Source: Prosthecobacter debontii (GTDB taxonomy: Bacteria; Verrucomicrobiota; Verrucomicrobiia; Verrucomicrobiales; Akkermansiaceae). From it: a stretch of DNA of 64,000 nt. The notes beneath the pieces are model-generated. The model was not told the DNA's origin. It worked only from the letters and a program-made list of their open reading frames with translations, and did no database searches. The translations under genes were made by a program, and so were the position numbers. The stretch spans positions 1 through 64,000 of the forward strand of contig CAMAXN010000009.1 of the NCBI GenBank assembly GCA_945862245.1, given 5' to 3'. This document shows positions 35,171-59,145 of the stretch, one piece after another; position 1 is the first letter of the stretch; every line of letters begins with the position of its first letter.

Positions 35171-35246
35171 GGGTGTTGGATGATTTGAATGGTGGATCAA
35201 TGTCAATTTTGAATTTACGAGTGGTGGAATATAATAGGATTTCTTT

Positions 35247-35873: not shown

Positions 35874-35895
35874 GATCGGAGGATTAGGTGAAAAT

Positions 35896-35925
35896 GGGTG
35901 CCGGCATGTTTCCATGCCGGCACCC
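35896..35925 (-). terminator. Perfect hairpin terminator after the PstS-like gene
   Basis: GGGTGCCGGCATG and its exact complement CATGCCGGCACCC form a 13-bp stem around TTTC, followed by ATTTT on the minus strand. It lies about 30 bp after the stop at 35954 and 20 bp before the next gene starts. Confidence 0.85.
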
Positions 35926-35953
35926 TGGATTTCATATACAATTGAGTTTCAGA

Positions 35954-37141: not shown

Positions 37142-37183
37142 ATTCTGATTTTCTAGTTTGGTTTGGTTTGTTGGATGATTAGA

Positions 37184-44700: not shown

Positions 44701-47700
44701 GTGACGATGGAGGAGCCGTCGGGCTGTTGAAGGGGGGTGGTCGGGGTGCCGGAGCGGGGTGACACGAGGAAGGAGCCGGGGAGCAGCGCGTAGCTCGCGG
44801 GCAGCAGGGTGTAGGTGCCCGCAGGTAGGCCGGATCCGTCTGCGAGGGTTATTTGGTCGCCGGGACGGAGGGAGTTGTTGACGTATCCGGGTTGACCCTG
44901 AAGGGACTGAGCCTGGGGATTGAACGGTGCGTAGGGCGCGTAATCGAATCCGTAGCCGGGGACGATGGCGAAAATCGTGTCCGAGGCGAGGAGGTCAGTA
45001 CGGCCGCCGTTTCCTGAGATGAAACGGTATGCAAGGAGGTCGCCGCCGCCGGAAATGTCGATGACGGAACCCTCGTCGGTGGCGAGGGTTAGGGCGGAAA
45101 GTTTGATATCCTTGTCCTCTGGGCCGATGGTGGTGATATCAAGGCCGGAAGGATCGAGCCATGAGTTGCCATCAAAGCTGATTCCGTATGGGAGGAGTGA
45201 GGCTTTCCCGGTGAAAGGATCGAGTGCCGAGGTGGAGGTGATGCTGTCGGAACCGAGGGTGAGGGCCGTTGTGACGGGAGTGGCAGCGAGGTTGCCAACG
45301 ACGGAATTCCGCGGAGCGGTTCCCGTGCCGTTCCAACCGAGATTGATGTTGCCGAGCGGGGCGCGGAGGGTGCCGTTTTGTGCGATGGTGGCGGCGTGTA
45401 TGTTCAGCGTGCCGCCAGCGGAAAAGGGTAGCGGCCGTGCCGCTACGCCCGAGAAGGAAATACCAGTATTGCCGTAGGAAAAAACATTGAAGGTAGATCC
45501 CGTGGTGGGATGGATCTGGCCGGCGTTGAAGCTGAGGTTTGCGGCGGCCTGGAGGGTTCCGTTGCCGCGAATGTCGCCCAAAGGGGCGTTGAAGCTGGCG
45601 GCGCCGATGTTGTGGAGCGAGAGGGTGCCGATGTCGATCAGGTTGGCGTTGATGGTGACATTTCCGTCACCAGTAGTTGGGAGTAGGCCGATGGGGGTTT
45701 GGCCGACGCCGGGGATGTTGGCGCTGAAGTAATTGATTACTTGGCCCGGTAGGGACGGGGGCAGGAAACTTTGCCCCGCGTAAAGATGTGCGGCATTGAG
45801 GGTGAGATTTCCGCCGGTTTCGAGGACACCGCCTGTGGCAAGGCGTATGGTACCGGGCATGTTGAGGCTCACTTCCCCCTCGAAGCGGATGTTTCCGCCC
45901 AAGCTCAGTGAGTGGAAACCGCCTTGCCCGAAGGAATCCACGGCGATGCGACCGAAACCAACGACCTGGTTCCCGTTTTCATCCAGCGGAGTAGTGCCGA
46001 TGGTTTCAGGGTTGGAGGAAGACGTAACGGGCCCGTTCTGTGTCAGGATGAGGTTGATGTCGGCGGATGAGGAACCACTGTTGAGGGGGATAAATCGTGA
46101 GGAGGAGAGGCTGAGGTTTCCACCGTTCGCGGAAGCGCCGCCGGAGCTGGCCGTCAGGGTTGCATCGCTATGGAGGAATGATTGGCCGGTTAGCGTGATG
46201 GAGCCTCCATTCGTCTGGATGGTAATGGGGACGGTGATGCGTCCGCCAAGAGAGGCGAGTGTGGAAGGTAAAAGGGTGGAGGCTGCGGGCGTGAGATCGA
46301 GAACGCCGGAGGTTCCGTTTGAGCTGATCAGCGCACCCTGGTGAGCGAGGATGTTTCCCGAAACGGAGATGGAGCCGCCTCCGAGAACCTCGCCGACACG
46401 AAGGCCCATCGGATCAGGCAGGAGCAGCGTTTTCCCAGAAGCATCCAACACGCTGCCGGAGCCGATTAGGACTGTGGTGAAGAGCGGTGGATCAGAGATC
46501 GCAGGAAAAGAGGTCGCGCCGGTGATGGATATCGAACCCCCGGGCGTTTTGATCGAGCCGAGAACAGTGGTGGTCTGACCATTCAAGGAGACGGAGCCTT
46601 TGGCGTCGGTCTCGATGGATGAACCTGCCGCAAGGATGATCTCGCCGCGGGCGAGGATGCTGGAAGTGAACCGGCTGGTCGCTCCCGTGGCGGAGAATCT
46701 GAGGGAAGAGGTGGGGCGAAGGCCTTCCGGCTGGATGACGGGTTCCAGTAAGGACAGAGGTTGGTCGTTGGCTGCCAGGGCGAGGCGGTTCTGGACGATG
46801 GGACGGATCGCGGTGTTTTCCGAAACCAGTATGCCGGGGATGAAATTGTTGTTATCCGGTGTGGCGATACCGATACCGGAGAGGGCGAAGTTCGAGAAGC
46901 CGCCTTGCGAGAAAAAGGAAGGATCAAGGCGGGTGACTTGTGCGTTGGGGCTGACTCCGCCGATTTGGAAGGCGGGCGCAGTAAAGCTGATATTGCCGCC
47001 GTTTGTGCCGGAAAATCCTCTCAGGTTTGCGCCAAGCTGGAGCTTCCCTCCAAGGATGGCGCTTTCGACGAGATCGCGTCCTGCGGAAATGATTATGGAG
47101 CCGGCATTACCGTAGGAAATACGAGCGTAGGCATCAGCGCGGGCACCGCCTGAGACATCGATGCTACCGCCGGCATTGAGAATGGCGTCGAAGGCATTGA
47201 TCGTAAGGGAGCCTCCGATCAGAGGGAGAGCAAGGGAGCCGGAGGTAGGGCTAGTGAGCCGGTCGTCGATGAGCAAACCGGATATGTCGATCGTGGCTGT
47301 CGCGCCGAGTCTGAAGACGCCCTTGTTTGGGTTAGCGATGGGTGTGGAGGATAATGCCGAATTGGCGATAGTAGTGATCTGGGACAGGGAGAGATTCGGG
47401 GCAAAAAAGGAAAGCGTGGCGCTGGGGGCGATAATTGAACCATTTACCGTGAGGTTGGATCCGGTAAACCTTAGGCTGCCTCGGTTGAATGTGTTGAGCG
47501 TGGTTGTTTCCGGGATGGTGATGGAACCGTCGGGATTGTTGATGGTTAGGTTGGTGAAACCGCTGGTGGTGAGGAGTTCAGGGCTCAGGTAGACCTCCTG
47601 CAGGCGGTCGTTCCGCAGTTGCGCAGGGTTGCCGTTTATGTCTGTCGTGAAGGCCTCAGCAGGTGCCAGAGGGTTTTGGAATTGGAAAGTGATGGCAGGA

Positions 47701-49997
47701 GGGGTCGGCGCGAAAATTGGCAGGCTGGCAAAAGTGCGGTCGATGGAGGTGAAGTTAATCGCCAAGCCGCTGGCCGGCGGAGGGGAACTGCGCTGATAAT
47801 TTCCAGTGAAAGTGTTTCCGATAAGTGTGCCATCGAGTGCAGCGGCTGGGGTGGTGATGCCGAGTGTGCCACCGGCAGCGCCTTGGAGGTAGCCTTCCTC
47901 AAGCCTCGATACGCCGGGGACAAGCTGTGAGGTGTAGATTTCAGTGGTGCGGAATTTATTGTTCGATGCATCGAATGCGCCGTCGTAGATGCCCTCGTAG
48001 ATGATGTCCGGGCGGGCTGCGGCAATGTCGATCACGTTACCATCGACCGAGACCAGGCGTGTGGTGCGGACAGTGGCGGGTTGGTAGGCGATGGAGCCGC
48101 CCGAGACATCCACTTTCGCTCCGGATTGAATTACGGTGGATTGTCCTGCGGAAATGGTGACGCTGCCCCCTGCGGTGGTGAGCTGGCCGACGCCGCGCTG
48201 GATGAGGTTCGCGAAGCCCGCGACATCCGCAAGGGGCGTGCCGAGCCATGTGTTGGACTCGTAGATGCCGACGTCACGGATATCGACCAATACGGACTGG
48301 CCGCGGAGCGAGCCGTTGCGCTGGAGCGGGGAGTTGGCAAGTTCGGCGCCGCGAAGATCGACCTCGATGATGTTCTGTGCGACAGATACGGCAACGTCAA
48401 GCGAGCCTGCCACGTTAACGACCGAGTCTTCATCGAGATAAACCTGTCCCGCAGACTGGGTGAAAGTGGAGGCCGACGAAACGCCGCCTTGAAAAAACCA
48501 CTCTCCTGCAGCGATCCGGACAAGGGCGTTCGGGGACAAGAGTGTGGAGTTCTTGCCTAGGTGGATGGCAAACCCCTCCATGTTGATCTGGGATCTCAGG
48601 GCTAGCTGGGTGCCGATTGCGGTTTCATTGCTGCCATATTCCGGAAGGATCTCGATGGCCGAGCCTTCACTGAGAGTGATGATGCCCGAGCTGCGGTTGA
48701 GGAAAGGAGCTGAGGAAAGGCCAGCGGAACCCGAGGAGGGATTGGAGATGGCTCCATAATGGGCGAGCAGGTCGATGCGTCCGTTAAGGGAAACGGAGGT
48801 ACTGGCGGCAAGTGCGCCGGTGTTGGAAATATTTTTCCCCGTGATGGTGATTGCTCCGCGGGGTGCTGAAATGATCCCTGAATTAACCGCGGTTCCACCG
48901 TATAGTCCCACTTGCCCGACAAAAACATCGAGGCCGCGTAAAGAAGGATCCGCGGCGTTGTGGGCGGCGATGCCGACTTGGAGTCCGGCGGCGAGGATGG
49001 TTTGGCCGGCGGGTGTGAGGATGGTTCCGGAGTTGGTGACATTGGGACCGGCGAGGAGCACGCGGCCGCCGTTTCCATCTGCGGAGACGGGGGTGGTGAT
49101 AGTGGCACCAGCCTGGATGGAAATGTCGCCGTAGCTGCCTGTGGAAATCGGCGGCGCGTCCGGGGTAAAGGAGGGAGTGCCGTTGGGACCGGCCGGCAGG
49201 TTGAGGCCGGAGAAGAGGAACTGTGAGTCGGGGTTATTGAGGAGGCCGCGGTTGATAAGGTTGGTGTTGATGGGGAGCGAGGAAAGCGTGAGCGTGTTCA
49301 CGTTCACCTGGCTGGAACCGCCGAAAATGATGCCGTTGGGATTGATCACGTAAACCTGGCCCTTAGCCTTGATCTGGCCAAGGATCTGGGAGGGGTTTCC
49401 GGTGGGATCAGTGATCCTGTTGAAAGCGATCCATTGATTCGCGTTGGCTCCGGCGGCGGATTGGTCGAAGTTGAGGACGGTTTCCTTGCCGACGTTGAAG
49501 GTTTGCCAGTCGAGCAGGGCTTGCTGGGCGGTCTGGCGGACGCCGACGTTGATGAGGTTGTCGGTGTCGATGGTTTGTGTGGGAGCATCTGCCCCAGTCC
49601 ATCGGGTGGGATCGGCGGTGGGATTGAGGCCACCCACGCCAAGGCCGTTGGGGACGGCGGGAAGGCCGGGAGCGAGGTTGTTGGGCCCGGATGCCGCGGC
49701 GGCGCGGGCGGTTTCCTGCATGGCGCGGAGGGCGTTGAGCGTGTTGGTGGTGCGGGCGAGCGCGTCCTGGGCGTTGGTCCTGGCCTGTGCGGTGTCGGCG
49801 GGTGTGGCTCCGCCGATGGGAGCGCTGCCGGGAGCCGCAGGGGCGGATGAGCCGCCGCCGCTTCCACCACCACGGAGGATGTCGGCGTTGGCCGGCCCGA
49901 GCAGGGTGACAAAAGCCATCGAGCTAAAAACGAGGGATGCCGTCAGTTGGGTGCGCATGGGGTTGGTGTGCGCGGCGGGTTGGTGATCCGGTTTCAT
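38784..49997 (-). CDS. Giant TpsA/filamentous-haemagglutinin-like exoprotein
   Basis: This 3737-residue protein is the window's largest gene. After an N-terminal signal (TASLVFSSMAFVTLLGPANA) and a Gly/Ala/Pro linker comes the TPS secretion domain, with NVGKETVLNFDQSAAGANAN and KGQVYVINPNGIIFGGSSQV; the NPNGI motif is used for recognition by TpsB. The rest is beta-helical FHA-type repeats with many short strand motifs (LTLENP, NGGNISFTA, GDISI). It ends in an acidic tail, EDDENEENEEDEESVEENP. The start at 49997 overlaps the prolyl isomerase stop (ATGA), which fixes it. Surface adhesion or fibre formation is likely; the target is unknown. Confidence 0.93.
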   Translation of the reverse strand: MKPDHQPAAHTNPMRTQLTASLVFSSMAFVTLLGPANADILRGGGSGGGSSAPAAPGSAPIGGATPADTAQARTNAQDALARTTNTLNALRAMQETARAAAASGPNNLAPGLPAVPNGLGVGGLNPTADPTRWTGADAPTQTIDTDNLINVGVRQTAQQALLDWQTFNVGKETVLNFDQSAAGANANQWIAFNRITDPTGNPSQILGQIKAKGQVYVINPNGIIFGGSSQVNVNTLTLSSLPINTNLINRGLLNNPDSQFLFSGLNLPAGPNGTPSFTPDAPPISTGSYGDISIQAGATITTPVSADGNGGRVLLAGPNVTNSGTILTPAGQTILAAGLQVGIAAHNAADPSLRGLDVFVGQVGLYGGTAVNSGIISAPRGAITITGKNISNTGALAASTSVSLNGRIDLLAHYGAISNPSSGSAGLSSAPFLNRSSGIITLSEGSAIEILPEYGSNETAIGTQLALRSQINMEGFAIHLGKNSTLLSPNALVRIAAGEWFFQGGVSSASTFTQSAGQVYLDEDSVVNVAGSLDVAVSVAQNIIEVDLRGAELANSPLQRNGSLRGQSVLVDIRDVGIYESNTWLGTPLADVAGFANLIQRGVGQLTTAGGSVTISAGQSTVIQSGAKVDVSGGSIAYQPATVRTTRLVSVDGNVIDIAAARPDIIYEGIYDGAFDASNNKFRTTEIYTSQLVPGVSRLEEGYLQGAAGGTLGITTPAAALDGTLIGNTFTGNYQRSSPPPASGLAINFTSIDRTFASLPIFAPTPPAITFQFQNPLAPAEAFTTDINGNPAQLRNDRLQEVYLSPELLTTSGFTNLTINNPDGSITIPETTTLNTFNRGSLRFTGSNLTVNGSIIAPSATLSFFAPNLSLSQITTIANSALSSTPIANPNKGVFRLGATATIDISGLLIDDRLTSPTSGSLALPLIGGSLTINAFDAILNAGGSIDVSGGARADAYARISYGNAGSIIISAGRDLVESAILGGKLQLGANLRGFSGTNGGNISFTAPAFQIGGVSPNAQVTRLDPSFFSQGGFSNFALSGIGIATPDNNNFIPGILVSENTAIRPIVQNRLALAANDQPLSLLEPVIQPEGLRPTSSLRFSATGATSRFTSSILARGEIILAAGSSIETDAKGSVSLNGQTTTVLGSIKTPGGSISITGATSFPAISDPPLFTTVLIGSGSVLDASGKTLLLPDPMGLRVGEVLGGGSISVSGNILAHQGALISSNGTSGVLDLTPAASTLLPSTLASLGGRITVPITIQTNGGSITLTGQSFLHSDATLTASSGGASANGGNLSLSSSRFIPLNSGSSSADINLILTQNGPVTSSSNPETIGTTPLDENGNQVVGFGRIAVDSFGQGGFHSLSLGGNIRFEGEVSLNMPGTIRLATGGVLETGGNLTLNAAHLYAGQSFLPPSLPGQVINYFSANIPGVGQTPIGLLPTTGDGNVTINANLIDIGTLSLHNIGAASFNAPLGDIRGNGTLQAAANLSFNAGQIHPTTGSTFNVFSYGNTGISFSGVAARPLPFSAGGTLNIHAATIAQNGTLRAPLGNINLGWNGTGTAPRNSVVGNLAATPVTTALTLGSDSITSTSALDPFTGKASLLPYGISFDGNSWLDPSGLDITTIGPEDKDIKLSALTLATDEGSVIDISGGGDLLAYRFISGNGGRTDLLASDTIFAIVPGYGFDYAPYAPFNPQAQSLQGQPGYVNNSLRPGDQITLADGSGLPAGTYTLLPASYALLPGSFLVSPRSGTPTTPLQQPDGSSIVTGYRSNNLAPSRSGPTTIANFEVAPSEIFRQRAEYQEFTANIFFSDVASSRNIPVPRLPSDAGILSFTASTGFSLAGNVTAARLTTASGALIDINSPVDIMINDSGTGVTPGTLTLSSSLLNSFGADSLLIGGIRTQSQGGITVSTSTKNLTLDNEDAPLIGNDIILTARENLTLGEDSAIIASGTRPIGSITLGSASSSGSGNGALVRVSSSSQNTVNRLGVTPGSLAILTTQSAASMSGASVTLDSTAATSLDPTTVLLGTSITLSSGELSIALENPGTIKPTSGLVLGGNALDTLLSNTSALTLRSYSNLNIYGTGQIGSSSFQNLTLQTANLRGINQASGSVNFTARNLTLENPVAPPTSAPAIANDGTLTFNSEKLNLSGGDISISGLSLVSLNATTRILTSSAGSLNVSAALSLNTPSLSGLQASKYSLRSLGTLTYASPSAATSFEGGLGADLSLIGSAVNFSGNIALPSGRLGITSTAGDLLISGSLDLSGISRQFSDVSRQTSGGTINLASENASIRILENAIINLSAPAAAGDAGQLNVATPNGSLEILGTITAYAGSSGTTGRFTLDTSSLPSLAALDNTLNIGSFTHLRDYRIRSGDVLINSSAISSTYRLAADQGNITLSGLINASGNRGGTIDIKANSSLTTLSGSTLNASAQTFDAAGKGGSITLEAGTLRNGQSLAGASLDLRTGSAINLTVAENTPTSASLGKFTGTLHLRAPRNAANNDLQLASIGSAISGASAILVEGYKLHDLTGTGTLNTALLGTIRSEANAYLSAPNYNAILSRLTATNPELDLILAPGVEIINRSGDLTLGSTSSNTSADWDFSTLRFGPRSAPGVLTLRAANNIALFNAISDGFSGGSSLWLAPLAVHNPLLPANSQSWSYRFTAGADFTASSFREVVDFSLLSPDKGNLQLGKNAGGATATGGANALTSSIIGNNFQVIRTGSGDIDITTARSLQLLNVFSSIYTAGTQVATPNQVRTPDDFITPILSLTLPPQQGSLGVAQQVYPAQYSMAGGDVTITAGFNTERKTRNNSGLIDDSSRQLPNNWLSRRGHIGPDGEYGAVSIGTLPRQFNDPAASTSWWVDFSNFFMSIGALGGGNITLTAGNDIINTDAVIPTNARAPIGTPDAATIHELGGGDLIVNAGRNIDAGIYYVERGEGTLLAGSEITTNSTRSPSFGIITNLNNPSASTLDPLTWLPTTLFLGKSSFDISASGDILLGPAVNSFLLPQGLNNKFWYKNYFSTFAADSSVSVNSSGGDVTLRNSNVLPNATAALPILANWLESQNLLTLSNNSTAFSQPWLRLTETNVQGFVSLLNLTAPSLYATSLSGNLNLAGSLTLFPSPTGQLELVASQGISALSPVGVSNNIIAGQRSKVWTSSTINLSDADPDNVPSTNRPLSIFGLLGRGVSNNNSTQSGSLQSITRLFVESGSFTGSNAVSSVKQDRHDAGLLHRYDTEPVRIYSGDGDISGLNLFTPKFARILSGAALTDIAFYIQNLASENLSIISAVGSIIASDLGSPLRNLANATGNALASGELVNAGDIQISGPGALQIIAGGDIDLGVGSARLDGTSSGFTSIGNLRNPFLGAQGADIILMAGLGPDGINAPQWNDFIQSYVTTEEGLELIEEISPGTDFPSLTESDQRLLATEIFFRLLRDTGRGYNDPESYGYGNYELGMAAIQSLFGEPEESEESVWDGEILARGRDIRTRSGGDIRLLAPGGGLTLANTTIGNPLAPPGVITEAGGSISIFTDQSVDIGIGRIFTLRGGDAVIWSTNGDIAAGSSSRTVQSAPPTRVVIDPQSAAVQTDLAGLATGGGIGVLATVEGVKPGDVDLIAPSGIIDAGDAGIRVSGNINLAAVQVVNAGNIAAGGTSSGGAPAVAAPSVSTPPPPASGNTASDDTAAATQEAAKREEEIDTTGQPSIYSVEVIGYGGGGPVEEVEDDENEENEEDEESVEENP

Positions 49998-50857
49998 TTC
50001 AGCTTGAGAAGTTCGATTTCGTTGACGGCGGGCGGGCTGTCGCGGAGGAGTTCGGAAAGGTAGGCCTCGCGGTTTTCGCGGGCTTTGTTAGAACGGAGAA
50101 GCGCATAGATGCGCGGCGCGAGTTCCGCCAGGGGCGGCGTGTGGGGCTCGCGGGCGTCGATGAGGCGGAGGATGTGCCAGCCGTCATCGAGGCGCACGGG
50201 TTCCGAGATGCCGCTGACCTTTAGACCGGGGAGAGCTTCGCGGATGCCGGGCTGGATCAGGTCGTCGCGGATCCAGCCAAGATCGCCTCCGTCCGGGGCG
50301 CTGGTGAGGTCATCGGAAAACCGACGGGCGATGGAGGCAAAATCGGCGGCGGGTTCGGTGAGCGCCTCGCGCACCTTGGCGAGCTTTGCCTCGGCCTCGG
50401 CGCTGGCGGCGGGTTCGCGGTCGGAGATGAAGATCTGGGCGACGCGCCAGGTTTTCGGGACGAGGAAGGACTCCTTGTTTTTCGCGTAGAAGTCGGCGAC
50501 CTCGGCCTCAGCGGGGAAATCTTTGGGCGGCGCGGAGGAGATGCGGAGGAAACTCTCGACCAGAGCGGCGTCGCGGGCACGGGCGAGCTCCTTGGCAACG
50601 GCCGGGGAGTCGGCGTGGTCGGCTGTATTGGCGTGCTCGAGCACGAGCCGCTGGATGAGGGTCGCGCGGACGAATTGCTTGAGTGCCTCGGCGTCAGCTT
50701 GGAGAGGCTGGCCGGCGGCGGTGGCGGCTGATTCCAGCATTTCACGGGCTTCGGCTGCGGAGAGGTTGATGTCCCCGATGCTGCCGATGATGGGTTCGGC
50801 GTGAGCGGTGGGCGAAGCAAGCGCGAGGGCGGCGAGAATTAGTAGACGGAGCATCAT
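49994..50857 (-). CDS. Parvulin-type peptidyl-prolyl isomerase (SurA/PpiC-like) of the TPS operon
   Basis: The 287-residue exported protein has a signal peptide (RLLILAALALASPTAHAEP), an N-terminal SurA-like helical region (AREMLESAATAAGQPLQADA), and one parvulin domain: KTWRVAQIFISDREPAA, SFDDLTSAPDGGDLGWIRDD, LQVSGISEPVRLDDGWHILR and LIDAREPHTPPL. It is translationally coupled to TpsA by a 4-bp overlap. This suggests a dedicated periplasmic chaperone that keeps the 370-kDa TpsA unfolded until TpsB exports it. Confidence 0.88.
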   Translation of the reverse strand: MMLRLLILAALALASPTAHAEPIIGSIGDINLSAAEAREMLESAATAAGQPLQADAEALKQFVRATLIQRLVLEHANTADHADSPAVAKELARARDAALVESFLRISSAPPKDFPAEAEVADFYAKNKESFLVPKTWRVAQIFISDREPAASAEAEAKLAKVREALTEPAADFASIARRFSDDLTSAPDGGDLGWIRDDLIQPGIREALPGLKVSGISEPVRLDDGWHILRLIDAREPHTPPLAELAPRIYALLRSNKARENREAYLSELLRDSPPAVNEIELLKLK

Positions 50858-51528
50858 CAGCGGGTTGCTTTTTCAGGTTTGGCGACGTTTTCGAGGATGG
50901 CGCCCTTGTAGCCCTCGACTTGGTTTTCGATTTTGACGCGGGTTTTCTGGATGAAGGGTTCGCGCGCTGAGAGGGCGCGGCCAAGGGAGTAGTTCTCGTA
51001 GCGCTCGAGGATTTCCAGCGAGGTGCGGTAGAGGTCGAGGTTCTTGCGCTCGCGGTCGGCGATGCTGTGCTTAAGGCGGGCGTTCTCGACTTTCAGCGCT
51101 TCGGCGGATTCCTCGTTCTTCTTGGCGGTGCGTGCGGCGAGTTGCTGGGCGGCGCGCCATTTTTCGATGGCCTCGACGTATTCGGCGATGCGCTTATCAC
51201 GTTCCGCGAGGCGCTCGGTGAGCGATTCGATGGTCTGCTCGGAGGCGGTCTTGTCCTCGCTGGCGCGCTTGGTGAGGGTGGCGAGGCGGGTGTTGAGGTC
51301 GTCGATTTCCTTCTGGAGAGTTACGGTTTTGCCCTGCTCGGCGGCGAGAGTGGCGAGGGCGTTGGCTTTTTCCACCTCGGCGGCGCGGAGCTGGAGGGCG
51401 GTGTTGCGGAGCTGTTCGCGGAGTTGGGCTTCTGCGGATGCGGGTTCCTGGGCCATGGTGGACGCGATGGACGCGAAGACGGCGAGGAGCGTGAGGAGTT
51501 TAGTTTTCATGGTGCGGTTAAAAATCAA
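50857..51528 (-). CDS. Coiled-coil periplasmic protein of the TPS operon
   Basis: The 223-residue product has a signal peptide (LLTLLAVFASIASTMAQEP) and then continuous heptad-like charged helix: REQLRNTALQLRAAEVEKAN, LQKEIDDLNTRLATLTKRAS, EQTIESLTERLAERDKRIAE. Its stop and the isomerase start overlap by one base (TGATG). Length and place between the porin and the isomerase suggest a periplasmic spacer or chaperone. No family is named. Confidence 0.8.
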   Translation of the reverse strand: MIFNRTMKTKLLTLLAVFASIASTMAQEPASAEAQLREQLRNTALQLRAAEVEKANALATLAAEQGKTVTLQKEIDDLNTRLATLTKRASEDKTASEQTIESLTERLAERDKRIAEYVEAIEKWRAAQQLAARTAKKNEESAEALKVENARLKHSIADRERKNLDLYRTSLEILERYENYSLGRALSAREPFIQKTRVKIENQVEGYKGAILENVAKPEKATR

Positions 51529-51532
51529 GGGG

Positions 51533-53350
51533 TCAGAACTTGGCGTTGAGGTCGATCATGAAGGTGTCGGCCTTGAGGGGCGCACCGGCGATTTCATCGC
51601 TACTCATCCAGCGGAGGCCGGCGCGGACGTGGGGACTGAGGGCGTAAGCGCCGCCGAGGTGGAAGCCCTGGACGTTGGTGCCGCCGCCGCCGAAGTCGGA
51701 GTCGGTGAAGCCATCGACGATGGCATCGGATTCTACGTAACGATATCCGGTGGTGAGCATCCAGTCGCCGAGGGATTCGAGCTTGGGCCTTCCGAACATG
51801 ATGGCGAGGTTCCAGGCTACATCGCCGCCTTCGTAGTTGCCGAGCAGCGGACCAGAGGTGCCATCGGGATCCAGGCCGCGGTTGTTGACAGCATTGGCGT
51901 TGAGGGCGCTGCGGTCGAAGGCGACGTTCTTGGTGGCCTCGCCGAGGGCGGTGAGGCGGTAGGTGTCCCAGCCATCGTAGTTGACCTGGCCGGTGAGCGT
52001 GACGTTGCGGAACGGGGTGGCGAGGCCGAAGTATTGGAACTGGTTGATGGTGCCTAAGTTGTTGGCGGCGGTGGGGGTGATATTGCGGAGCGGAAAGTAG
52101 GTGTTGCCGCGCTGCGCGAAGCCGGGTCGGGTGGCATCCGTGTCGCCCGCGTCGCTGGCCGTCAAGGGTACGTAGGGAGAGGAGAGACGGCCTTCGATCT
52201 TGTCGAAATCGTAGTAGGAAAGGCCGGCTTTGGCCGACCACTCGTCGTCGATTTTCCAATCGATGCCGAACTGAGCGCCGGTGAGCCATTTGTCCTCGCT
52301 CTCGAATTTTGCGGGTTGGTTGGATGCGAAATTCAGGTCGGTGTTGAACACGGGGAAAATGCCGGCTGTTCCAAAGAGATGGAGGTCGTCCTGGAGGCGA
52401 ACGCGACCGCGGGCGGCGAGGCCGTCGAAGCCGATGTCATCGTCCCACTGGACTTCGGTTGAGAAGAACGGGTTGTCGAAGCGGCCGAGGAGGAAGGTGA
52501 GTTCCTCGCCATCGCCATTGCCCGGACCGGCATCATAGGAGAGAAAGGCGCGGTCCAGCCAGATGGCGAACTTCGAGAAATTCCCGCCCTGGGAACCGAG
52601 CGTCTGGTTCGTGGAGGTGGGTGAGTTGTTCTCGCCAGTGGCGACGCGGAAGCCGGCGTTGAAACCCTCGCCGAGCATAATTTCCGCACCTGCGCGTGCG
52701 CGGATGCGGAGGCGATGGCGATCCTGATCGACGTTGTATTGGGGGGAGAAGACATTACCGGTGGTGTCGAAGGGGGCACCGTTGTTGATGAAGTTAAAGT
52801 TGGGGAAGAAACCGGTGTTGGCGTTGCCGGAATCGAAGAAGAGGTTTTCCGAACGGAAGCGAAGGTCGCCGAACGGGATGACGCGGCGCGTCCAATCCGG
52901 GGCACCGGTTGCGCCCCAGTTTTCCTCGCGGGCCTGAGCCATGAGTTCCTGATGTATCTCGTCGCGGATTTCCTGGCGTACGACGGCTGGGACATACGGA
53001 ATGCTGTGGCCGCCATCGGCGGGCATGGATGGAGCGGCGACTGCTTCAAGTTGGGCCTGCGCGATGAGCGCGTCCTGCTCGGCCTGTGCGATGAGTTCCA
53101 GAGCTTCGGCCTGGGTTAGGACGCCCTTGCGCACGAGCGCAGCGATGAGGTTGACGGTAGCGTTGGTGGAGGGGGAGGGAAGGAGCTCGCCAACCGGCGC
53201 TTGCTCGGATGGAGGAAGCGGGATTTCGGAAGCGAGGTCGGGTTCAGGAGTAGCTGCATCCTGCGCGCTGATCATGCCGCACGAAAGGGCGAGCACGAGG
53301 GATGCGCGAAGCATGTGGGGACGGAGGCGGATGGCGGTTCGGGAGGTCAT
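51533..53350 (-). CDS. Putative porin of the TPS-Ton operon (Porin_5-like)
   Basis: The 605-residue protein has an N-terminal signal (RASLVLALSCGMISAQDAAT) and a short helical region (ALVRKGVLTQAEALELIAQA). A long barrel follows: WTRRVIPFGDLRFRSENLFF, YNVDQDRHRLRIRARAGAEI, GFDGLAARGRVRLQDDLHLF, and the end KADTFMIDLNAKF. It matches the 'putative porin' family found next to TonB-type and TPS genes in other bacteria; this is recalled, not searched. It could form the outer-membrane channel energised by the adjoining TonB system. Confidence 0.8.
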   Translation of the reverse strand: MTSRTAIRLRPHMLRASLVLALSCGMISAQDAATPEPDLASEIPLPPSEQAPVGELLPSPSTNATVNLIAALVRKGVLTQAEALELIAQAEQDALIAQAQLEAVAAPSMPADGGHSIPYVPAVVRQEIRDEIHQELMAQAREENWGATGAPDWTRRVIPFGDLRFRSENLFFDSGNANTGFFPNFNFINNGAPFDTTGNVFSPQYNVDQDRHRLRIRARAGAEIMLGEGFNAGFRVATGENNSPTSTNQTLGSQGGNFSKFAIWLDRAFLSYDAGPGNGDGEELTFLLGRFDNPFFSTEVQWDDDIGFDGLAARGRVRLQDDLHLFGTAGIFPVFNTDLNFASNQPAKFESEDKWLTGAQFGIDWKIDDEWSAKAGLSYYDFDKIEGRLSSPYVPLTASDAGDTDATRPGFAQRGNTYFPLRNITPTAANNLGTINQFQYFGLATPFRNVTLTGQVNYDGWDTYRLTALGEATKNVAFDRSALNANAVNNRGLDPDGTSGPLLGNYEGGDVAWNLAIMFGRPKLESLGDWMLTTGYRYVESDAIVDGFTDSDFGGGGTNVQGFHLGGAYALSPHVRAGLRWMSSDEIAGAPLKADTFMIDLNAKF

Positions 53351-53359
53351 GGGAGAAAA

Positions 53360-54028
53360 TTAAGGTTTACGGGCATTGATGCGGAGGTTGATAGGCATGG
53401 GCATGTCCTCCGGCGGCGGATCGGAAAGGACAAGTCCGGTGAGGATCTGATTGCGGATGATTTCATCGAGTGTGCGGTCGCCCGTGGAGTTGGTGATTTC
53501 GGCACGGGTGACGCGGCCTTTGCGATCCGCCCAGATGCGGACCTCGATGCTGAGCGTGGCGTTCCGCGTGGCGGAATGATTTCCAAGGGATTGGGTGATG
53601 GTGTTTTGCACACGGGAGGCGTACCAGCCCCAGCGGGATCCACCGGCACGGGCGCCGATCTGGCGGTTGCCGCCACGGTTACCTCCACCGGCGGTGAGGC
53701 CGAAGCTGTTGTCACCGTCGCCGATAAGTCCGGTTCCAAGATCGGCAGCAGGCTCATCGGGAGCGGGTGCGTCATCGGGCGGAGGCTCGTCCGCCGCCAC
53801 AGGATCCTGCTCGATCATTTCCGGTTCCTCTTCCGGCGGGGGTGGCGGGGGGGGTGGTGGCGGTGGTGGTGGTGGCGGCGGGGGCACGAAAACCTCGATG
53901 ATCCGGTCGTTCGCGGGCGCGGCGGTGGTTTCCTCCGGGCTATCGCTCCTCATGAAAAAAGAGACCACGCCGCCGATCAGCACGATGGCGAGGATGAATC
54001 CGATAATGACTCCTTTTTTTAACATCAC
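53360..54028 (-). CDS. tonB: TonB energy transducer
   Basis: The 222-residue product has an N-terminal membrane helix (KGVIIGFILAIVLIGGVVSF), a run of 17 prolines in the periplasmic spacer (VFVPPPPPPPPPPPPPP), and an acidic region. The C-terminal TonB domain reads SRWGWYASRVQNTITQSL, NATLSIEVRIWADRKGRVTR, AEITNSTGDRTLDEIIRNQI. Its start overlaps the exbD stop by four bases. It would contact the plug or periplasmic face of an outer-membrane partner, here perhaps the neighbouring porin or TpsB. Confidence 0.9.
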   Translation of the reverse strand: MMLKKGVIIGFILAIVLIGGVVSFFMRSDSPEETTAAPANDRIIEVFVPPPPPPPPPPPPPPPPPEEEPEMIEQDPVAADEPPPDDAPAPDEPAADLGTGLIGDGDNSFGLTAGGGNRGGNRQIGARAGGSRWGWYASRVQNTITQSLGNHSATRNATLSIEVRIWADRKGRVTRAEITNSTGDRTLDEIIRNQILTGLVLSDPPPEDMPMPINLRINARKP

Positions 54029-54429
54029 TTCTGGGTGGCTAAGCCGATTTTATCGATCTGGAGACGGCCTAGGACATCGAGCACGTCCATGATTCCTTGG
54101 TATTGAGATGCACGGTCGCCGCGGACTACGACGGGCACCTCGGGTTCCGCCGCCTTGATGGCTCCAAGCCGGCTTTCGAGTTCGGCCAAGGTGACGGGGA
54201 TGGTGTTGAGGAATATGTTTCCCTCTGGCGAAACGGTGATCGCTTGGGTTTTGGGTAGGGAAAGATCGGCGGTGGCCGGTTTGCTGGATGCGCGCGGGAG
54301 ATCTACCTTGAGGCCCTGTACGCCGGCGGTAGTCATGATGATGAAAATGAGAAGGAGAACCAGATAGAGGTCCACCATCGGGGTGACGTTGATGTCGTCG
54401 TAGGATTTATCGTCGTCTGAAACGTCCAT
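54025..54429 (-). CDS. exbD: ExbD-type proton channel subunit
   Basis: The 134-residue product has a cytosolic start (DVSDDDKSYDDINVTPMVDL), one membrane helix with the proton-binding Asp in MVDLYLVLLLIFIIMTTAGV, and a periplasmic ExbD domain (QAITVSPEGNIFLNTIPVTL, EVPVVVRGDRASQYQGIMDV). The stop overlaps the tonB start. It pairs with the ExbB-type fusion encoded upstream. Confidence 0.93.
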   Translation of the reverse strand: MDVSDDDKSYDDINVTPMVDLYLVLLLIFIIMTTAGVQGLKVDLPRASSKPATADLSLPKTQAITVSPEGNIFLNTIPVTLAELESRLGAIKAAEPEVPVVVRGDRASQYQGIMDVLDVLGRLQIDKIGLATQK

Positions 54430-54496: not shown

Positions 54497-56431
54497 TCAG
54501 GTTGTGGCACCCGAGGCTGGGACGTGGTCAGAGAAAGAGAAATTGGGATTCTGGGTTGGGACGTCCGGGATGGGGGTCGGGGCATATGGGGAGATTTCGC
54601 CCTCCGGCGGATAGAACTCGGCCATCCTGGCAACGAACTCGTCGATGAAGACTTTCATTTCCGCGGTGACGTTCCTGATGCGACCGTTAAGGTAGGAGTA
54701 GATGAAGAGCGCAGGGATGGCGACAATGAGACCGGCAACGGTGGCGAGAAGGGCGGAGGCGATACCCGGAGCGATCGAGTTGACATCGACTTCGCCGGAT
54801 TTGGAAATGATGGCGAAGGTGATCATGACGCCGACGACGGTGCCGAGGAGTCCGACGTAAGGGCCGCCGGCGATGGAGACGGTGAGGAAGATTAGGCCGG
54901 AGGTAAGTTTCTGTTGGGCGCGGACGAGGCCGGTGTCGAGGGCGGCTCGAATCGCCTGGATGGAGCGGCCGGAGAGGCCTTTGGTGCGGGCTTTATCGCG
55001 GGAAAGGCGGTTGCGTATTTCCTCGGAGCCGATGCTGTAGATTTGGAAGAGCGGGGATTTTTCAACGAGCCTGATTTTTTCGGGGTCGGCATTTCCGCCG
55101 AGGGATTTGACGGAAGCTTCGTCGTCGTGATCGATGGCGGTCAGGTCGGTGGAGAGGTTTTTCCATTGTTTGACGAACTCGGCGGTGCCTTTTTCGATGG
55201 AATTGAGGTAGGCGAATTTCTGGACGGCGACGGTCCATCCGAAGATGATCATGAGGACGCAGACACCGACGGCGATCCAGCCATCGAACATCATATCCTG
55301 GGCAATGTCGCCGAAGAGCATGATGTGCTCGAGGGCTTCGTTGTGCCCGCCTGCGGCGGAGGCGGAGGATTCATTGGTTCCTAGGACGAGGGCGCGCGAG
55401 GAGGCTTCGGAAGCGCCTTGGTTGACGGCGGCGAACTTCATCCATGCGGCCGGGCGGGCGGTGGTCGAGACGGCTACGGCGTCGAGTTCGCCGTTGAGGT
55501 TGGCGAGCGCATCGGAGGGAGGTGTTGCGCCGCCGAGGACGAACTGGCCGCTGATGGCTGGAATAGCTGCGTTGAGGGTGCCGTATGCTTCGCCGTTGAG
55601 GTAAAGCGTGATAGTGTTGCCAGAGGCCACGAGGCCGAGGTGCGACCATGTGGCGGCGGGCGCGGCTTCGCCCGAGGCGGATGAGACCGTGCCGGTGGGT
55701 GTGACGACCTGCACCAGAGGCACGCCTTGGTTGAGCAGGAGGCGCAGGGTGTTGGTGCCGTCGGATTTCGAGAAAACAACCGCATTATCCTGCAGGGCGG
55801 CGGGCCTGACCCAGGTGGTGACGGTGAGTTCCTGGCCGGCGGTGAAGTCGAGCGTTTCCGAGGCGGGGATCACGAGCGGCACGTCGAGGACGCGGAGTCC
55901 GGGGCCGATGATGCCGCCGTCGGATGTGACGCCGGGGTTCTCGGCGTTGTTGGCGTTGCGGGTTGAGTCCTCAAAGGTCGTGCCCATTTTTCCGAAATGG
56001 TGGAACATGACCGTCGCGTCATCGAAGGTGTCGGTCGGGGCGGTGGCTCCCGCCGTTTCCGCGGAGCCGTAGTAGAGGTGGATGGTGGTGGATTCACCGG
56101 CGGGGACTTCGGGGAGTTTCACCCACACGAAGGCCTCGTTGATGAGGTTGTCGTAGCGCTCGATGGTATGGGGAAGCACCGTCTTGCCGTCCGCCGTGGT
56201 GAAGCGCAGGTCCTTGCCGTCGGCGGTGGCGGCCATGAAATTGAAATTTCCGTCGAAAAGCCGGACCAGCGCGGTGACTTCGTTGACGTTTTCTTGGATC
56301 GCTGCGCCGCTTGGGCCGGCGTCGATGGTGATGGCCTGGCGCTGGGACCAGGCGGGGTTCCACCAGTTTTCGGGTGCGGCGGCCAGGGAGGCACCGGTGA
56401 GCAAGGCGAATAATACGATGACGTGTTTCAT
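54497..56431 (-). CDS. ExbB/TolQ-type channel fused to DUF2341 and LamG-like domains
   Basis: The 644-residue fusion has a signal peptide (KHVIVLFALLTGASLAAAPE) and a DUF2341 domain (WWNPAWSQRQAITIDAGPSG). A LamG/concanavalin-like domain follows (LDFTAGQELTVTTWVRPAAL, SHLGLVASGNTITLYLNGEA, LDAVAVSTTARPAAWMKFAA). A MotA/TolQ/ExbB channel ends the protein, with three membrane helices (GWIAVGVCVLMIIFGWTVAV, TSGLIFLTVSIAGGPYVGLL, ASALLATVAGLIVAIPALFI) and a cytoplasmic helix region. ExbB proteins are normally about 240 residues and lack an outer domain, so the 350-residue periplasmic head is unusual. Start at MKHVIV; the upstream 13 codons overlap the TpsB end. Confidence 0.9.
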   Translation of the reverse strand: MKHVIVLFALLTGASLAAAPENWWNPAWSQRQAITIDAGPSGAAIQENVNEVTALVRLFDGNFNFMAATADGKDLRFTTADGKTVLPHTIERYDNLINEAFVWVKLPEVPAGESTTIHLYYGSAETAGATAPTDTFDDATVMFHHFGKMGTTFEDSTRNANNAENPGVTSDGGIIGPGLRVLDVPLVIPASETLDFTAGQELTVTTWVRPAALQDNAVVFSKSDGTNTLRLLLNQGVPLVQVVTPTGTVSSASGEAAPAATWSHLGLVASGNTITLYLNGEAYGTLNAAIPAISGQFVLGGATPPSDALANLNGELDAVAVSTTARPAAWMKFAAVNQGASEASSRALVLGTNESSASAAGGHNEALEHIMLFGDIAQDMMFDGWIAVGVCVLMIIFGWTVAVQKFAYLNSIEKGTAEFVKQWKNLSTDLTAIDHDDEASVKSLGGNADPEKIRLVEKSPLFQIYSIGSEEIRNRLSRDKARTKGLSGRSIQAIRAALDTGLVRAQQKLTSGLIFLTVSIAGGPYVGLLGTVVGVMITFAIISKSGEVDVNSIAPGIASALLATVAGLIVAIPALFIYSYLNGRIRNVTAEMKVFIDEFVARMAEFYPPEGEISPYAPTPIPDVPTQNPNFSFSDHVPASGATT

Positions 56432-56454: not shown

Positions 56455-58050
56455 TTAGAAATCGAGCCAACCACGGAATGTGACGCGTACATCGCCGCGC
56501 TCCGAGGACTCCACGGGAGTGAGCGGAAACGCCACGTCCACGGAGGAATTCATGTGATCTAGATATCGCGCGCGCGTGCCTAGGCCGACGGAGACAAAGG
56601 TTTCGGTGGGCATCTGGCCGGGCAGTGAGTCGTAGTTTCCGAGGACTCCAAGGTCGGTGAAAACGTGGAGCCTCAGCTCATCGCCGCGCTCCTTCCCGAT
56701 TTCGGATTTCCCGATGTATGAGGGGCTGCGGAGTTCGGCGGTGGCGAAAATCGCGTTGTCGCCGAGTGACGAAGATTCCAAGTATCCCCGCGTGGTACCT
56801 AGACCACCGCCGGAAAACTGCTCGGAGTTGATAAGCGGCTTGTTGGCCACCTGGCCCTGGAGTTTGGCGAACCACTGGGCGCCGGATTTCATGTCGCGGG
56901 TGTGGGAAACGTCGCCCTTAAGGACGATGAAGGAGCCGTCGGCGTTGAAGCGTTTATTGGCGTAGGAGGACGAGTCACTGCCCATGCCGCGAAGATTGAA
57001 GACCAGGGAAACGTTGGCCTCCGTGAAGGCGTCCTCACCGTGTAGTTTGGTCGCACCGTAACTGGCAGTGAAGGGATAATACTCGATGGGGGCGGAGATT
57101 ACCCCGCCGCCCATGAGGATATCCTCCTCGAAGCTCTTGCGGTCGATTCCGAAACTGAAAGTGGGAAAAAATCCTTCGCCGCCCGGCAGGTCGATGATTG
57201 CGCGGACTCCCGCCATGTCACCTTTACCGACGACCGATCCGCCGCCGAGGGTGGAGATGTCGGAGTCCTGGCGGGTAGCGGTGAACAGCAGGCTGGCCGT
57301 GTCCGAGACCCTCGCGAGGTAGTTTCCTGAAAACACCAGCGCGTCGTCCGTGTTCTCGGGCGCCACTTGGAAATTTATTCCCAGCGTATGGCCGAGTTGG
57401 AATAGGTTTCCATAGGAAAGCGAGCCGTTGAGACGCAGAGGGGTGGTGTTCGGGCTGTAGCGGTTGTTGAGTTCGAGCGATCCGTGAAGGGGTAGTTCGT
57501 CCTCGATGTTGAGATCAACCTCGAAGGTGCCGGGTTCCTCGCCGGGGCGGAGCTCTGGCTTGACGCGGCGGTCGGCGAGCCGGTTGAGGGCTAGGATTTC
57601 CCGACGGACATCGTTCATGTTCGGCACCGAGCCTTCCGCGAGCGAAGGCGCGCCCGCGCGGATCCGTGAAGGGAGATGGTGCTGCGAGCCGAGCACCCGA
57701 AGACGCGATACGGAGCCCTCGACCACCTGCAGCACGACCACGCCACGGGTTGGATCCTGCTGCGGGATTAATACCGACACTGTCTGGAAGCCGGCATCGC
57801 GGTAAGCGCTTTCAAGGGCGCCGCGCGCGGACTCCACATCCTCCGCCGTGCGGTGCGGACCGAGGTAGGGATAGACAGCTCTCTCAACCTCGACATTGTC
57901 CAGTGCTTTTGCTCCCGTTACCCGGTATTCCTTAATATAGAAGGTGTAATTCAACTCATTTCCCTGACCCTGTGAGGACACCACAAGCAAGCACCAAGCG
58001 ATGAAACACAGCGCGGTGCGGCAAGGGGAAGTTAGGGATCTCGGTGCCAT
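56455..58050 (-). CDS. TpsB/ShlB/FhaC-type outer-membrane transporter
   Basis: The 531-residue product has a signal segment (SPCRTALCFIAWCLLVVSSQ). Two POTRA domains follow (FYIKEYRVTGAKALDNVEVE, RAVYPYLGPHRTAEDVESAR; then QVVEGSVSRLRVLGSQHHLP), then a 16-stranded barrel with ELNNRYSPNTTPLRLNGSLS and a conserved loop near residue 425, FSGGGLGTTRGYLESSSLGD, containing the R-G-Y motif used to reach the TpsA substrate. The C-terminus ends VRVTFRGWLDF. It is the first gene of the operon. Start at MAPRSL. Confidence 0.93.
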   Translation of the reverse strand: MAPRSLTSPCRTALCFIAWCLLVVSSQGQGNELNYTFYIKEYRVTGAKALDNVEVERAVYPYLGPHRTAEDVESARGALESAYRDAGFQTVSVLIPQQDPTRGVVVLQVVEGSVSRLRVLGSQHHLPSRIRAGAPSLAEGSVPNMNDVRREILALNRLADRRVKPELRPGEEPGTFEVDLNIEDELPLHGSLELNNRYSPNTTPLRLNGSLSYGNLFQLGHTLGINFQVAPENTDDALVFSGNYLARVSDTASLLFTATRQDSDISTLGGGSVVGKGDMAGVRAIIDLPGGEGFFPTFSFGIDRKSFEEDILMGGGVISAPIEYYPFTASYGATKLHGEDAFTEANVSLVFNLRGMGSDSSSYANKRFNADGSFIVLKGDVSHTRDMKSGAQWFAKLQGQVANKPLINSEQFSGGGLGTTRGYLESSSLGDNAIFATAELRSPSYIGKSEIGKERGDELRLHVFTDLGVLGNYDSLPGQMPTETFVSVGLGTRARYLDHMNSSVDVAFPLTPVESSERGDVRVTFRGWLDF

Positions 58051-58205
58051 TGGGAAATGAAGTATGCATCTGCGGGTGCGTATTCCCGTGGAGCACACTA
58101 GTCATCATTGAAGCCCCCCCCGATCCGCAAAATATCTCGTGTGTCAAATCCGTCACATTGGCGGGCGATACGAAATTGTGGCAGCGATTCCGGCCGCTTC
58201 GGCCG

Positions 58206-58379
58206 TCACTTCCTTGGCTGCAGGGTGCGCTCGTCCACCGGGATGGCTTTCGGTGGTGAGCTTCCCGCGCCGTTTCCTAGAGGATTCACTAGGCTGCTCT
58301 TAATCAGAAACCAGATCGCGGTTGCCAGAAGGAGACAGAGGATCTTGGCGATCCAGCTTTTCGAGAGTTTCAGTTTCAT
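58206..58379 (-). CDS. 57-residue membrane microprotein resembling the N-terminus of CdaR/YbbR
   Basis: Starting within the 3' end of cdaA in another frame, it reads MKLKLSKSWIAKILCLLLAT, then AIWFLIKSSLVNPLGNGA and a proline-rich end. The basic start and the KIL-LLLA-IWF helix match the N-terminal segment of YbbR/CdaR proteins, which regulate the diadenylate cyclase CdaA and are usually encoded just after it. The YbbR repeat domains are missing. It overlaps cdaA by about 80 bases and is too short to be obvious. It could be a truncated remnant or a real small regulator. Confidence 0.5.
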   Translation of the reverse strand: MKLKLSKSWIAKILCLLLATAIWFLIKSSLVNPLGNGAGSSPPKAIPVDERTLQPRK

Positions 58380-59145
58380 TCGGTTCGGAGTTCGGGTTGG
58401 AGAAAAAGATCACGGAGAGCCGTTCGCGGAATTGTTTTTCGGTGAGGTTGCGCTCCAGCCTGCCGTTCTCGCAGATGGAGATGCTGCCCGTTTCCTCGCT
58501 GACGACGATCGCCATGGCATCGGTGCGCTCGGTGAGGCCGATGGCGGCGCGGTGGCGGAGGCCGGTGGAGCGATCCTGCATTTCCCTTTCCGTGACGGGA
58601 AACACACAGGCGGCGCCGGCCACGCGGTCTTCGGCGATGATCATGCCGCCGTCGTGGAGGGGTGATTTCGGGAAAAAGATGCTCATCGCCAGCTCGGGGG
58701 TGAACTGGGCGTCGAGAACGACTCCCGTCTCAAGCTGCTCTTTGAGCGAAATATCGCGCTGTATGGCGAAGAGTGCACCGATGCGTTTTTTGGAAAGCAT
58801 CACTACGGTATCCGCAAGACGCTCCACAAAGGCAAGGCGACGCTTGCTAGAGAACGAAAAGATGCGACTGCCACCAAGGCGGGCAAGGCCATTACGAAGC
58901 TCCGGCTGAAAGATCACAAGCAGTGCGAACGCCAGCACAGCCGCCGAGCGGGTGATGATCCAACCGATCACCTCGAATTCAAATAGGCGCGTTATCAATG
59001 CCAGAGCGACGAGGATAAACAACAGCCCCACAAGAATCTGGGCACCACGCGTGGCGCGAAACGTTTTGTAGAGTTGGTAGATACAGAACGCCAGCAACAG
59101 GATCTCGATCCCGTCCCGCCAATGATCTCCGATGAACTTCCACAT
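58300..59145 (-). CDS. cdaA: Diadenylate cyclase CdaA (c-di-AMP synthase)
   Basis: The 281-residue protein has three N-terminal membrane helices (WRDGIEILLLAFCIYQLY; GAQILVGLLFILVALALIT; ITRSAAVLAFALLVIFQPE). The DisA_N catalytic domain follows, with KSPLHDGGMIIAEDRVAGAA carrying the DGG motif and DRSTGLRHRAAIGLTERTDA carrying RHR, both needed for ATP binding and cyclisation. It makes the second messenger c-di-AMP, which controls osmolyte transport and wall balance. It is divergent from sufT, with 118 bp between them. Confidence 0.93.
   Translation of the reverse strand: MWKFIGDHWRDGIEILLLAFCIYQLYKTFRATRGAQILVGLLFILVALALITRLFEFEVIGWIITRSAAVLAFALLVIFQPELRNGLARLGGSRIFSFSSKRRLAFVERLADTVVMLSKKRIGALFAIQRDISLKEQLETGVVLDAQFTPELAMSIFFPKSPLHDGGMIIAEDRVAGAACVFPVTEREMQDRSTGLRHRAAIGLTERTDAMAIVVSEETGSISICENGRLERNLTEKQFRERLSVIFFSNPNSEPNETETLEKLDRQDPLSPSGNRDLVSD

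What the first reader, a model, noticed from the sequence alone, without database searches (positions are those of the whole stretch)
54497..56431. ExbB-type channel with a 350-residue periplasmic DUF2341/LamG head
Normal ExbB has no such head. LamG domains bind glycans or proteins, so the proton channel may be gated by, or bound to, the periplasmic TpsA chain.
Basis: partly seen in the sequence, partly recalled or inferred. Interest (0 to 1): 0.6.

Follow-up and report, generated by a model that had tools for sequence, protein, structure and literature searches.

The report
Headed ExbB powering giant-adhesin secretion system
A proton-driven motor protein carrying a large extra domain outside the inner membrane is inherited strictly together with one class of giant surface adhesin, whose tail end carries a short conserved motif that looks like a handle for that motor, which suggests that a secretion route thought to need no energy source has one here.

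Summary
Window 54497-56431 (-) encodes a 644-aa protein: signal peptide, DUF2341, LamG, then an ExbB/TolQ channel. The head is modelled confidently (AlphaFold2), and the same order occurs in about 109 relatives in Verrucomicrobiota and Pseudomonadota. It belongs to a conserved gene set: TpsB, headed ExbB, ExbD, TonB, Porin_5, coiled coil, PPIase, TpsA. P. aeruginosa PA0690-PA0699 has a similar published layout; I could not check its ExbB2 for a head. DUF2341 on such channels is also published.

New here:
(1) Across 444 sampled genomes of two phyla, headed ExbB occurs in exactly the 14 genomes with a TpsA ending in DUF3739. In one of them the two parts lie on different contigs.
(2) All 41 such TpsA C-termini examined carry a conserved motif (PSxxxVEV[IL]GYGG), predicted disordered, near the end. 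It resembles the SusC/RagA TonB box. It is absent from 12 other TPS proteins and from the other operon proteins.
(3) The channel lacks the TM3 glutamate of ExbB/TolQ (0 of 109).
(4) A sister channel, 68-72% identical, carries a DUF3450-like (TtpC-like) head instead.

Best reading: a dedicated Ton motor acts on the periplasmic tail of TpsA; the head is a docking adaptor. Gating by TpsA is untested.

The parts
54497..56431 (-). Headed ExbB (644 aa)
56021..56221 (-). DUF2341 Pfam match (residues 71-137)
55445..55852 (-). Laminin_G_3 Pfam match (residues 194-329)
   Evidence: LamG-type PDB relatives
54614..55288 (-). Channel helices (residues 382-606); the position of the TM3 glutamate of ExbB/TolQ is Ser 559 here
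54025..54429 (-). ExbD (134 aa) with the TM aspartate
   Evidence: Pfam ExbD 1.6e-24; Asp in 145 of 146 relatives
53360..54028 (-). TonB-like protein (222 aa), proline-rich stalk and TonB_2 C-terminal domain
   Evidence: 29.4 bits, cut-off 22
51533..53350 (-). Porin_5 outer-membrane barrel (605 aa)
   Evidence: 5.2e-187
50857..51513 (-). Coiled-coil periplasmic protein
   Evidence: conserved at this place in the operon; coiled-coil matches only
49994..50857 (-). SurA-like parvulin PPIase (287 aa)
   Evidence: Rotamase 4.7e-18
56455..58098 (-). TpsB (POTRA_2 + ShlB barrel); POTRA follows the signal peptide with no room for plug helix H1
38784..49997 (-). TpsA, 3737 aa, TPS domain at 127-251
39039..39365 (-). 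DUF3739 domain of TpsA (residues 3545-3653)
38868..38903 (-). TpsA tail motif PSIYSVEVIGYG (residues 3699-3710), TonB-box-like
   Evidence: controls; SusC comparison

Best explanation
The protein is the scaffold subunit of a dedicated Ton-type (proton-driven) motor that serves one class of two-partner secretion, the class whose giant TpsA ends in DUF3739. SHOWN by computation: the head and channel are one conserved protein; it is the only ExbB in its operon; it co-occurs with DUF3739-TpsA in every sampled genome of two phyla; TpsA carries a conserved motif in a predicted-disordered C-terminal tail. INFERRED: five headed ExbB surround two ExbD, as in E. coli and Serratia, so five heads form a crown on the periplasmic side. 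TpsA is threaded N-terminus first through TpsB by the usual folding-driven route, and its tail stays in the periplasm. The operon's TonB grips the TonB-box-like motif in that tail by beta-augmentation, and ExbB/ExbD transmit proton-motive force to it, so as to finish export, hold or tension the adhesin, or release it from TpsB. The DUF2341-LamG head is a docking or spacing adaptor that positions this motor against its periplasmic partners (TonB, the coiled-coil protein, or the TpsB POTRA domains). It is probably not a glycan sensor or channel gate.
For: Gene order TpsB-headed ExbB-ExbD-TonB-Porin_5-CC-(PPIase)-TpsA is conserved. TpsB lies upstream in every one of the 80 best loci that has upstream sequence, in about 22 close relatives, and in Methylosinus, Cupriavidus, Burkholderia, Variovorax and Klebsiella records. 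Co-occurrence: Pseudomonadota sample 9 genomes with DUF3739 = the same 9 with headed ExbB, of 299; Verrucomicrobiota 5 = the same 5, of 145; pooled Fisher p about 1e-26, without correction for phylogeny. In G474 the motor genes are on contig C17 and TpsA, Porin_5 and TpsB on C29. G202 has one headed ExbB and four DUF3739 TpsAs; the tail motif is in all four. Motif: 41 of 41 tails, allowing variants; an island of 0.2-1.9 bits entropy between flanks mostly near 3 bits; modelled without secondary structure; 0 of 12 complete TPS proteins without DUF3739; strict form absent from all other operon proteins. SusC boxes in the PDB read DEVVV(V/T)GY(G), with box D82-G88 directly before Y89 in PMC7618045. 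Precedents: Ton-dependent export of PopC via Oar (PMC6434023); periplasmic C-termini of HMW1, HxuA and CdrA (PMC5422565); Serratia ExbB extension contacts the HasB C-terminal domain (PMC9008036). Head exchange with a TtpC-like head in a different Ton operon.
Against: The motif is short, and TonB boxes vary too much for a sequence test to be decisive: profile searches with the tail found no TonB-dependent transporter. Known TonB boxes sit N-terminally in plugged barrels, not at the C-terminus of cargo. Textbook TPS needs no energy source (PMC5422565). Porin_5 is also present in every genome checked for it, so TonB might act on it. The missing TM3 glutamate leaves it open how, or whether, this channel conducts protons. 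The mirror-tree signal for the head (strongest with TpsB and the coiled coil) is weak and uncontrolled for phylogeny.
Confidence: 0.45

Rival explanations
1. The Ton motor energises the Porin_5 barrel (or TpsB) for uptake of something captured by surface TpsA, so TpsA, Porin_5 and the motor form a capture-and-import machine, like HxuA with HxuC. The tail motif then serves only to anchor TpsA in TpsB.
For: Porin_5 occurs in all four genomes checked for it and in nearly all loci. In P. aeruginosa the related cluster is controlled by phosphate starvation and PUMA3 (PMC2729926, PMC5422565). Ton systems usually import. A conserved hydrophobic stretch (NVTINLI) lies near the Porin_5 N-terminus.
Against: Pfam finds no plug domain in Porin_5 or TpsB, and the tail motif is found only in TpsA. 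HMW1-type tail anchors work by a disulphide loop (PMC5422565), and the window tail has no cysteine.
Confidence: 0.25
2. One reading: the LamG head binds TpsA (or a glycan) directly and gates the proton channel.
For: The head is part of the only ExbB of the operon and strictly accompanies DUF3739-TpsA. LamG domains are often binding modules (general knowledge).
Against: LamG relatives include arabinanase, S-layer and neurexin domains with different ligands. The head joins TM1 by a flexible, variable linker, and TM1 is peripheral in ExbB pentamers (general knowledge), which is poor geometry for gating. The sister protein does without a LamG head while keeping the channel.
Confidence: 0.12
3. The head is cleaved off and acts as a free periplasmic chaperone; fusion to the channel is only a way of co-producing it.
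For: The linker is low-confidence and variable. Residues 5-350 have relatives in about 1000-aa proteins without a channel.
Against: Head and channel are encoded as one frame in about 109 distinct relatives of two phyla; no locus was seen with the two as separate neighbouring genes.
Confidence: 0.08

Closest known systems
P. aeruginosa TPS cluster PA0690-PA0699 (PdtA/PdtB, ExbB2, ExbD2, PPIase; PMC2729926)
   Same: TpsA, TpsB, ExbB, ExbD and a PpiC-type PPIase next to each other, with hypothetical genes between; co-regulated by VreI; PUMA3-type sigma/FecR genes also lie beside the Methylosinus operon.
   Different: The head on PA0693 and the tail motif on PdtA could not be checked here; no role for ExbB2/ExbD2 in secretion was found in the papers read.
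Generic ion transporters with DUF2341 or DUF3450 N-terminal appendages (mBio 2025, PMC12505986)
   Same: The same domain architecture of the A subunit.
   Different: That paper leaves the function open ('lineage-specific functions') and the passages read do not link DUF2341 to two-partner secretion.
Vibrio TonB2 system (TtpB/TtpC/TtpD; PMC6957404)
   Same: Ton operon with extra essential parts; a similar layout (DUF3450 protein, cc-headed ExbB, ExbD, TonB, TPR) carries the sister channel in the window's genus.
   Different: Different head fold, TonB-dependent iron uptake, a separate plain ExbB2, and no TpsA/TpsB.
Serratia ExbB with a 50-residue periplasmic extension (PMC9008036)
   Same: Signal peptide plus periplasmic N-terminal extension on ExbB; the extension contacts the C-terminal domain of a TonB paralogue.
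   Different: Short, unfolded, Ala/Pro-rich; haem uptake.
Oar/PopC secretion in Myxococcus (PMC6434023)
   Same: The Ton system is needed to export a protein.
   Different: The TonB box is on the barrel plug of a TonB-dependent transporter, not on the cargo.

Membership tests
MotA/TolQ/ExbB proton channel family (PF01618) | Family domain with three TM helices | tested here: met
   4.2e-28, 98 bits against cut-off 22.9; helices
MotA/TolQ/ExbB proton channel family (PF01618) | Partner ExbD/TolR with TM aspartate | tested here: met
   ExbD 1.6e-24; Asp in 145 of 146
Canonical ExbB or TolQ | TM3 glutamate in PGIAEAL | tested here: not met
   Ser 49, Ala 36, Gly 24, Glu 0 of 109 (of the 5 that the pattern missed, 3 print as PGMAAAL and 2 were counted with them without being read through); Glu in TolQ chains and in L152, L153
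Canonical ExbB or TolQ | NCBIfam equivalog cut-off | tested here: not met
   tolQ 113 of 221, exbB 69 of 206 bits
Two-partner secretion (type Vb) | TPS domain in TpsA and POTRA_2/ShlB barrel in TpsB | tested here: met
   PF05860 68 bits, POTRA_2 2e-15, ShlB 1.4e-13
Two-partner secretion (type Vb) | N-terminal plug helix H1 of TpsB | tested here: not met
   POTRA starts about 5-15 residues after the apparent signal peptide in the window and its close relatives; cleavage site judged by eye
Two-partner secretion (type Vb) | Export without an energy source | not testable with these tools
   Needs mutants
TonB-dependent transporter system | TonB C-terminal domain | tested here: met
   TonB_2 29.4 bits, cut-off 22
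TonB-dependent transporter system | Plugged 22-strand barrel with N-terminal TonB box in the operon | tested here: not met
   No plug or receptor domain in Porin_5 or TpsB
TonB box | Short beta-forming motif accessible to TonB | tested here: inconclusive
   Conserved, disordered, resembles SusC box; profile searches empty; binding not tested
TtpC | DUF3450-like coiled-coil head | tested here: not met
   Head is DUF2341-LamG

The most novel reading that the evidence does not exclude
Probability: 0.38. Interest if true: 0.85.

Novelty: new variant of a known kind. Interest (0 to 1): 0.62.

Why it matters
Type V secretion is taught as needing no energy source at the outer membrane. A dedicated Ton motor that always accompanies one TpsA class, with a candidate TonB box on the cargo, makes that claim directly testable in environmental bacteria. 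It also assigns a likely pathway to three orphan items (DUF2341 on ExbB, DUF3739, and the unexplained exbBD genes of the P. aeruginosa-type TPS cluster), and offers a natural ExbB family that lacks the TM3 glutamate for studies of how the channel works.

Tried and rejected
No P. aeruginosa chromosome could be reached by name. Mirror-tree correlations: head highest with TpsB and CC, TpsA values failed; treated as exploratory. Profile of the tail motif against the PDB and tail sequences against NCBIfam: nothing useful. Literature on ExbB Glu176: no hits. No paper found for DUF3739 (zero occurrences in the listed papers). Considered and rejected: chance fusion or assembly error (same architecture in many independent genomes); Tol-Pal system (no TolA/TolB/Pal in the operon). 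Four of 16 control TPS C-termini were truncated or off-frame and not counted. One genome of the Pseudomonadota nine (G490) shows only the channel part, at a contig start, so its head is not verified.

Full report
OBSERVATION. The ORF at 54497-56431 (-) encodes 644 residues. Pfam gives DUF2341, Laminin_G_3 and MotA_ExbB, all above cut-off. AlphaFold2 with 26 homologues predicts a confident beta-rich head (30-355), a weak linker, and the three-helix channel. The signal peptide and N-out topology of ExbB TM1 place the head in the periplasm (inference). The finding is confirmed.

OPERON. On the minus strand the order is TpsB, headed ExbB, ExbD, TonB, Porin_5, coiled coil, SurA-like PPIase, TpsA. 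There is only one ExbB, so the headed protein must itself form the ExbB pentamer (inference from ExbB5ExbD2 in PMC9008036). The order is kept in about 22 relatives of the same genus and order. In the 80 best loci of a named-genome scan, TpsB lies upstream of the headed ExbB in every locus that has upstream sequence; these include Bradyrhizobium, Tardiphaga and a MAG named Acidocella. Proteobacterial plasmids carry it as well. Llamas et al. 2009 list a similar set in P. aeruginosa: tpsA, tpsB, exbB2, exbD2, hypothetical genes and a PpiC-type isomerase (PMC2729926). I could not verify a head on that ExbB2.

CO-OCCURRENCE. The window TpsA ends with DUF3739 (PF12545, residues 3545-3653). In 299 Pseudomonadota genomes, nine have DUF3739 and the same nine have the headed ExbB; in one of the nine (G490) the ExbB match lies at a contig start and shows only the channel. 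In 145 Verrucomicrobiota genomes, five have DUF3739 and the same five have the headed ExbB. Pooled Fisher p is about 1e-26; this ignores phylogeny. In 59 close relatives, 18 have both, seven have only the head and one only DUF3739; most of these are incomplete genomes, and for the two that are at least 90% complete (G031, G052) the contig ends inside or just before tpsA. In G474 the motor genes and the TpsA-Porin_5-TpsB genes lie on different contigs, and G202 has one headed ExbB but four DUF3739 TpsAs. The link is therefore functional rather than only positional.

TAIL MOTIF. Forty-one DUF3739-type C-termini were read, counting the window and L024. All show a short motif PSxxxVEV[IL]GYGG or a recognisable variant near the end; the regular expression matched 36 and the other five (VEILGYGG, VEIIGYGS, VQILGFGS, VRVLSTGG, GSVVSFGI) were assigned by eye. 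The weakest, GSVVSFGI, is a poor match. In a 34-row alignment S168, V172, V174, G176 and G178 are at least 90% conserved, while flanking columns are near random. AlphaFold2 gives the DUF3739 end beta structure and the tail none. The strict pattern is absent from all TpsB, ExbD, TonB, Porin_5, coiled-coil and PPIase sequences in hand, and a relaxed pattern is absent from 12 complete TPS proteins without DUF3739. It resembles the SusC TonB box: PDB chains read DEVVVVGYG and DEVVVTGY, and PMC7618045 places the box at D82-G88 directly before Y89.

CHANNEL. At the position of the TM3 glutamate of ExbB/TolQ (PGIAEAL) 109 distinct headed proteins have Ser (49), Ala (36) or Gly (24) and none was seen with Glu; two of the Ala entries were counted with their siblings without being read through. 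The sister family also has Ser. ExbD keeps its aspartate (145 of 146). The consequence for proton transfer is unknown.

HEAD EXCHANGE. Five same-genus genomes hold a channel 68-72% identical over residues 354-620 with a different, coiled-coil head. Its operon is a DUF3450 protein, headed ExbB, ExbD, TonB, TPR protein and an OprP-like porin, like the Vibrio TonB2 system with TtpB, TtpC and TtpD (PMC6957404). The head match to DUF3450 is below cut-off. Head type thus follows the outer-membrane task, which fits an adaptor role. DUF2341-LamG pairs also occur in about 1000-aa proteins without a channel, many per genome.

MECHANISM. I favour a Ton motor dedicated to TpsA, with TonB gripping the tail motif. 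Shown: architecture, conservation, co-occurrence, motif. Inferred: periplasmic tail (precedents HMW1, HxuA, CdrA in PMC5422565), TonB binding, force on TpsA, adaptor role of the head (precedent: Serratia ExbB extension and HasB). Ton-dependent protein export has a precedent in Oar/PopC (PMC6434023). TpsB here has no room for a plug helix H1, which would be consistent with another means of control.

NOVELTY. The fusion itself is in databases (NCBI names such proteins DUF2341 or MotA/TolQ/ExbB) and DUF2341 appendages were noted in 2025 (PMC12505986). TPS-exbBD linkage dates from 2009. The strict pairing with DUF3739, the tail motif, the glutamate loss and the head exchange were not found in the papers read, but the library is limited to open-licence papers.

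Noticed in passing
L021 12446-14002, L022 9819-11351, L023 9291-10853, L024 1780-3342, L025: Same-genus ExbB with a DUF3450-like coiled-coil head and a channel 68-72% identical to the window's, in a TtpB/TtpC/TtpD-like operon with an OprP-like porin.
   Followed up: partly
window 54614-55288 and about 109 relatives: The TM3 glutamate of ExbB/TolQ is Ser, Ala or Gly in this family.
   Followed up: partly
window 56455-58098: TpsB lacks the N-terminal plug helix; POTRA starts right after the signal peptide in close relatives too.
   Followed up: partly
G019, G026, G029 (for example L168, L169); L167: Up to about 20 proteins per genome, often about 1000 aa, carrying a DUF2341-LamG pair without a channel; function unknown.
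   Followed up: no
G009 contigs C8, C9, C11, C13: Four identical-scoring copies of the headed ExbB, all near contig ends, in a 10-contig genome: either two genomic copies or an assembly overlap.
   Followed up: no
L134 3584-12357: A Klebsiella plasmid (IncFIB, IncHI1B) carries the operon with tpsB and the PPIase split between frames, and no TpsA in the stretch.
   Followed up: no
L131 15475-16017, L133 15452-15979, L134 10822-11322: A YbjN-domain protein joins the operon in Proteobacteria; none was seen in the window's operon.
   Followed up: no
L131 3571-6827: ECF sigma factor, FecR and STN/TonB genes (PUMA3-like) precede tpsB in Methylosinus.
   Followed up: no
window 58300-59145: CdaA-type di-adenylate cyclase lies just upstream of tpsB on the same strand.
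   Followed up: no
window 33932-37996: Three ORFs (446, 395 and 270 aa, minus strand) without any Pfam match.
   Followed up: no
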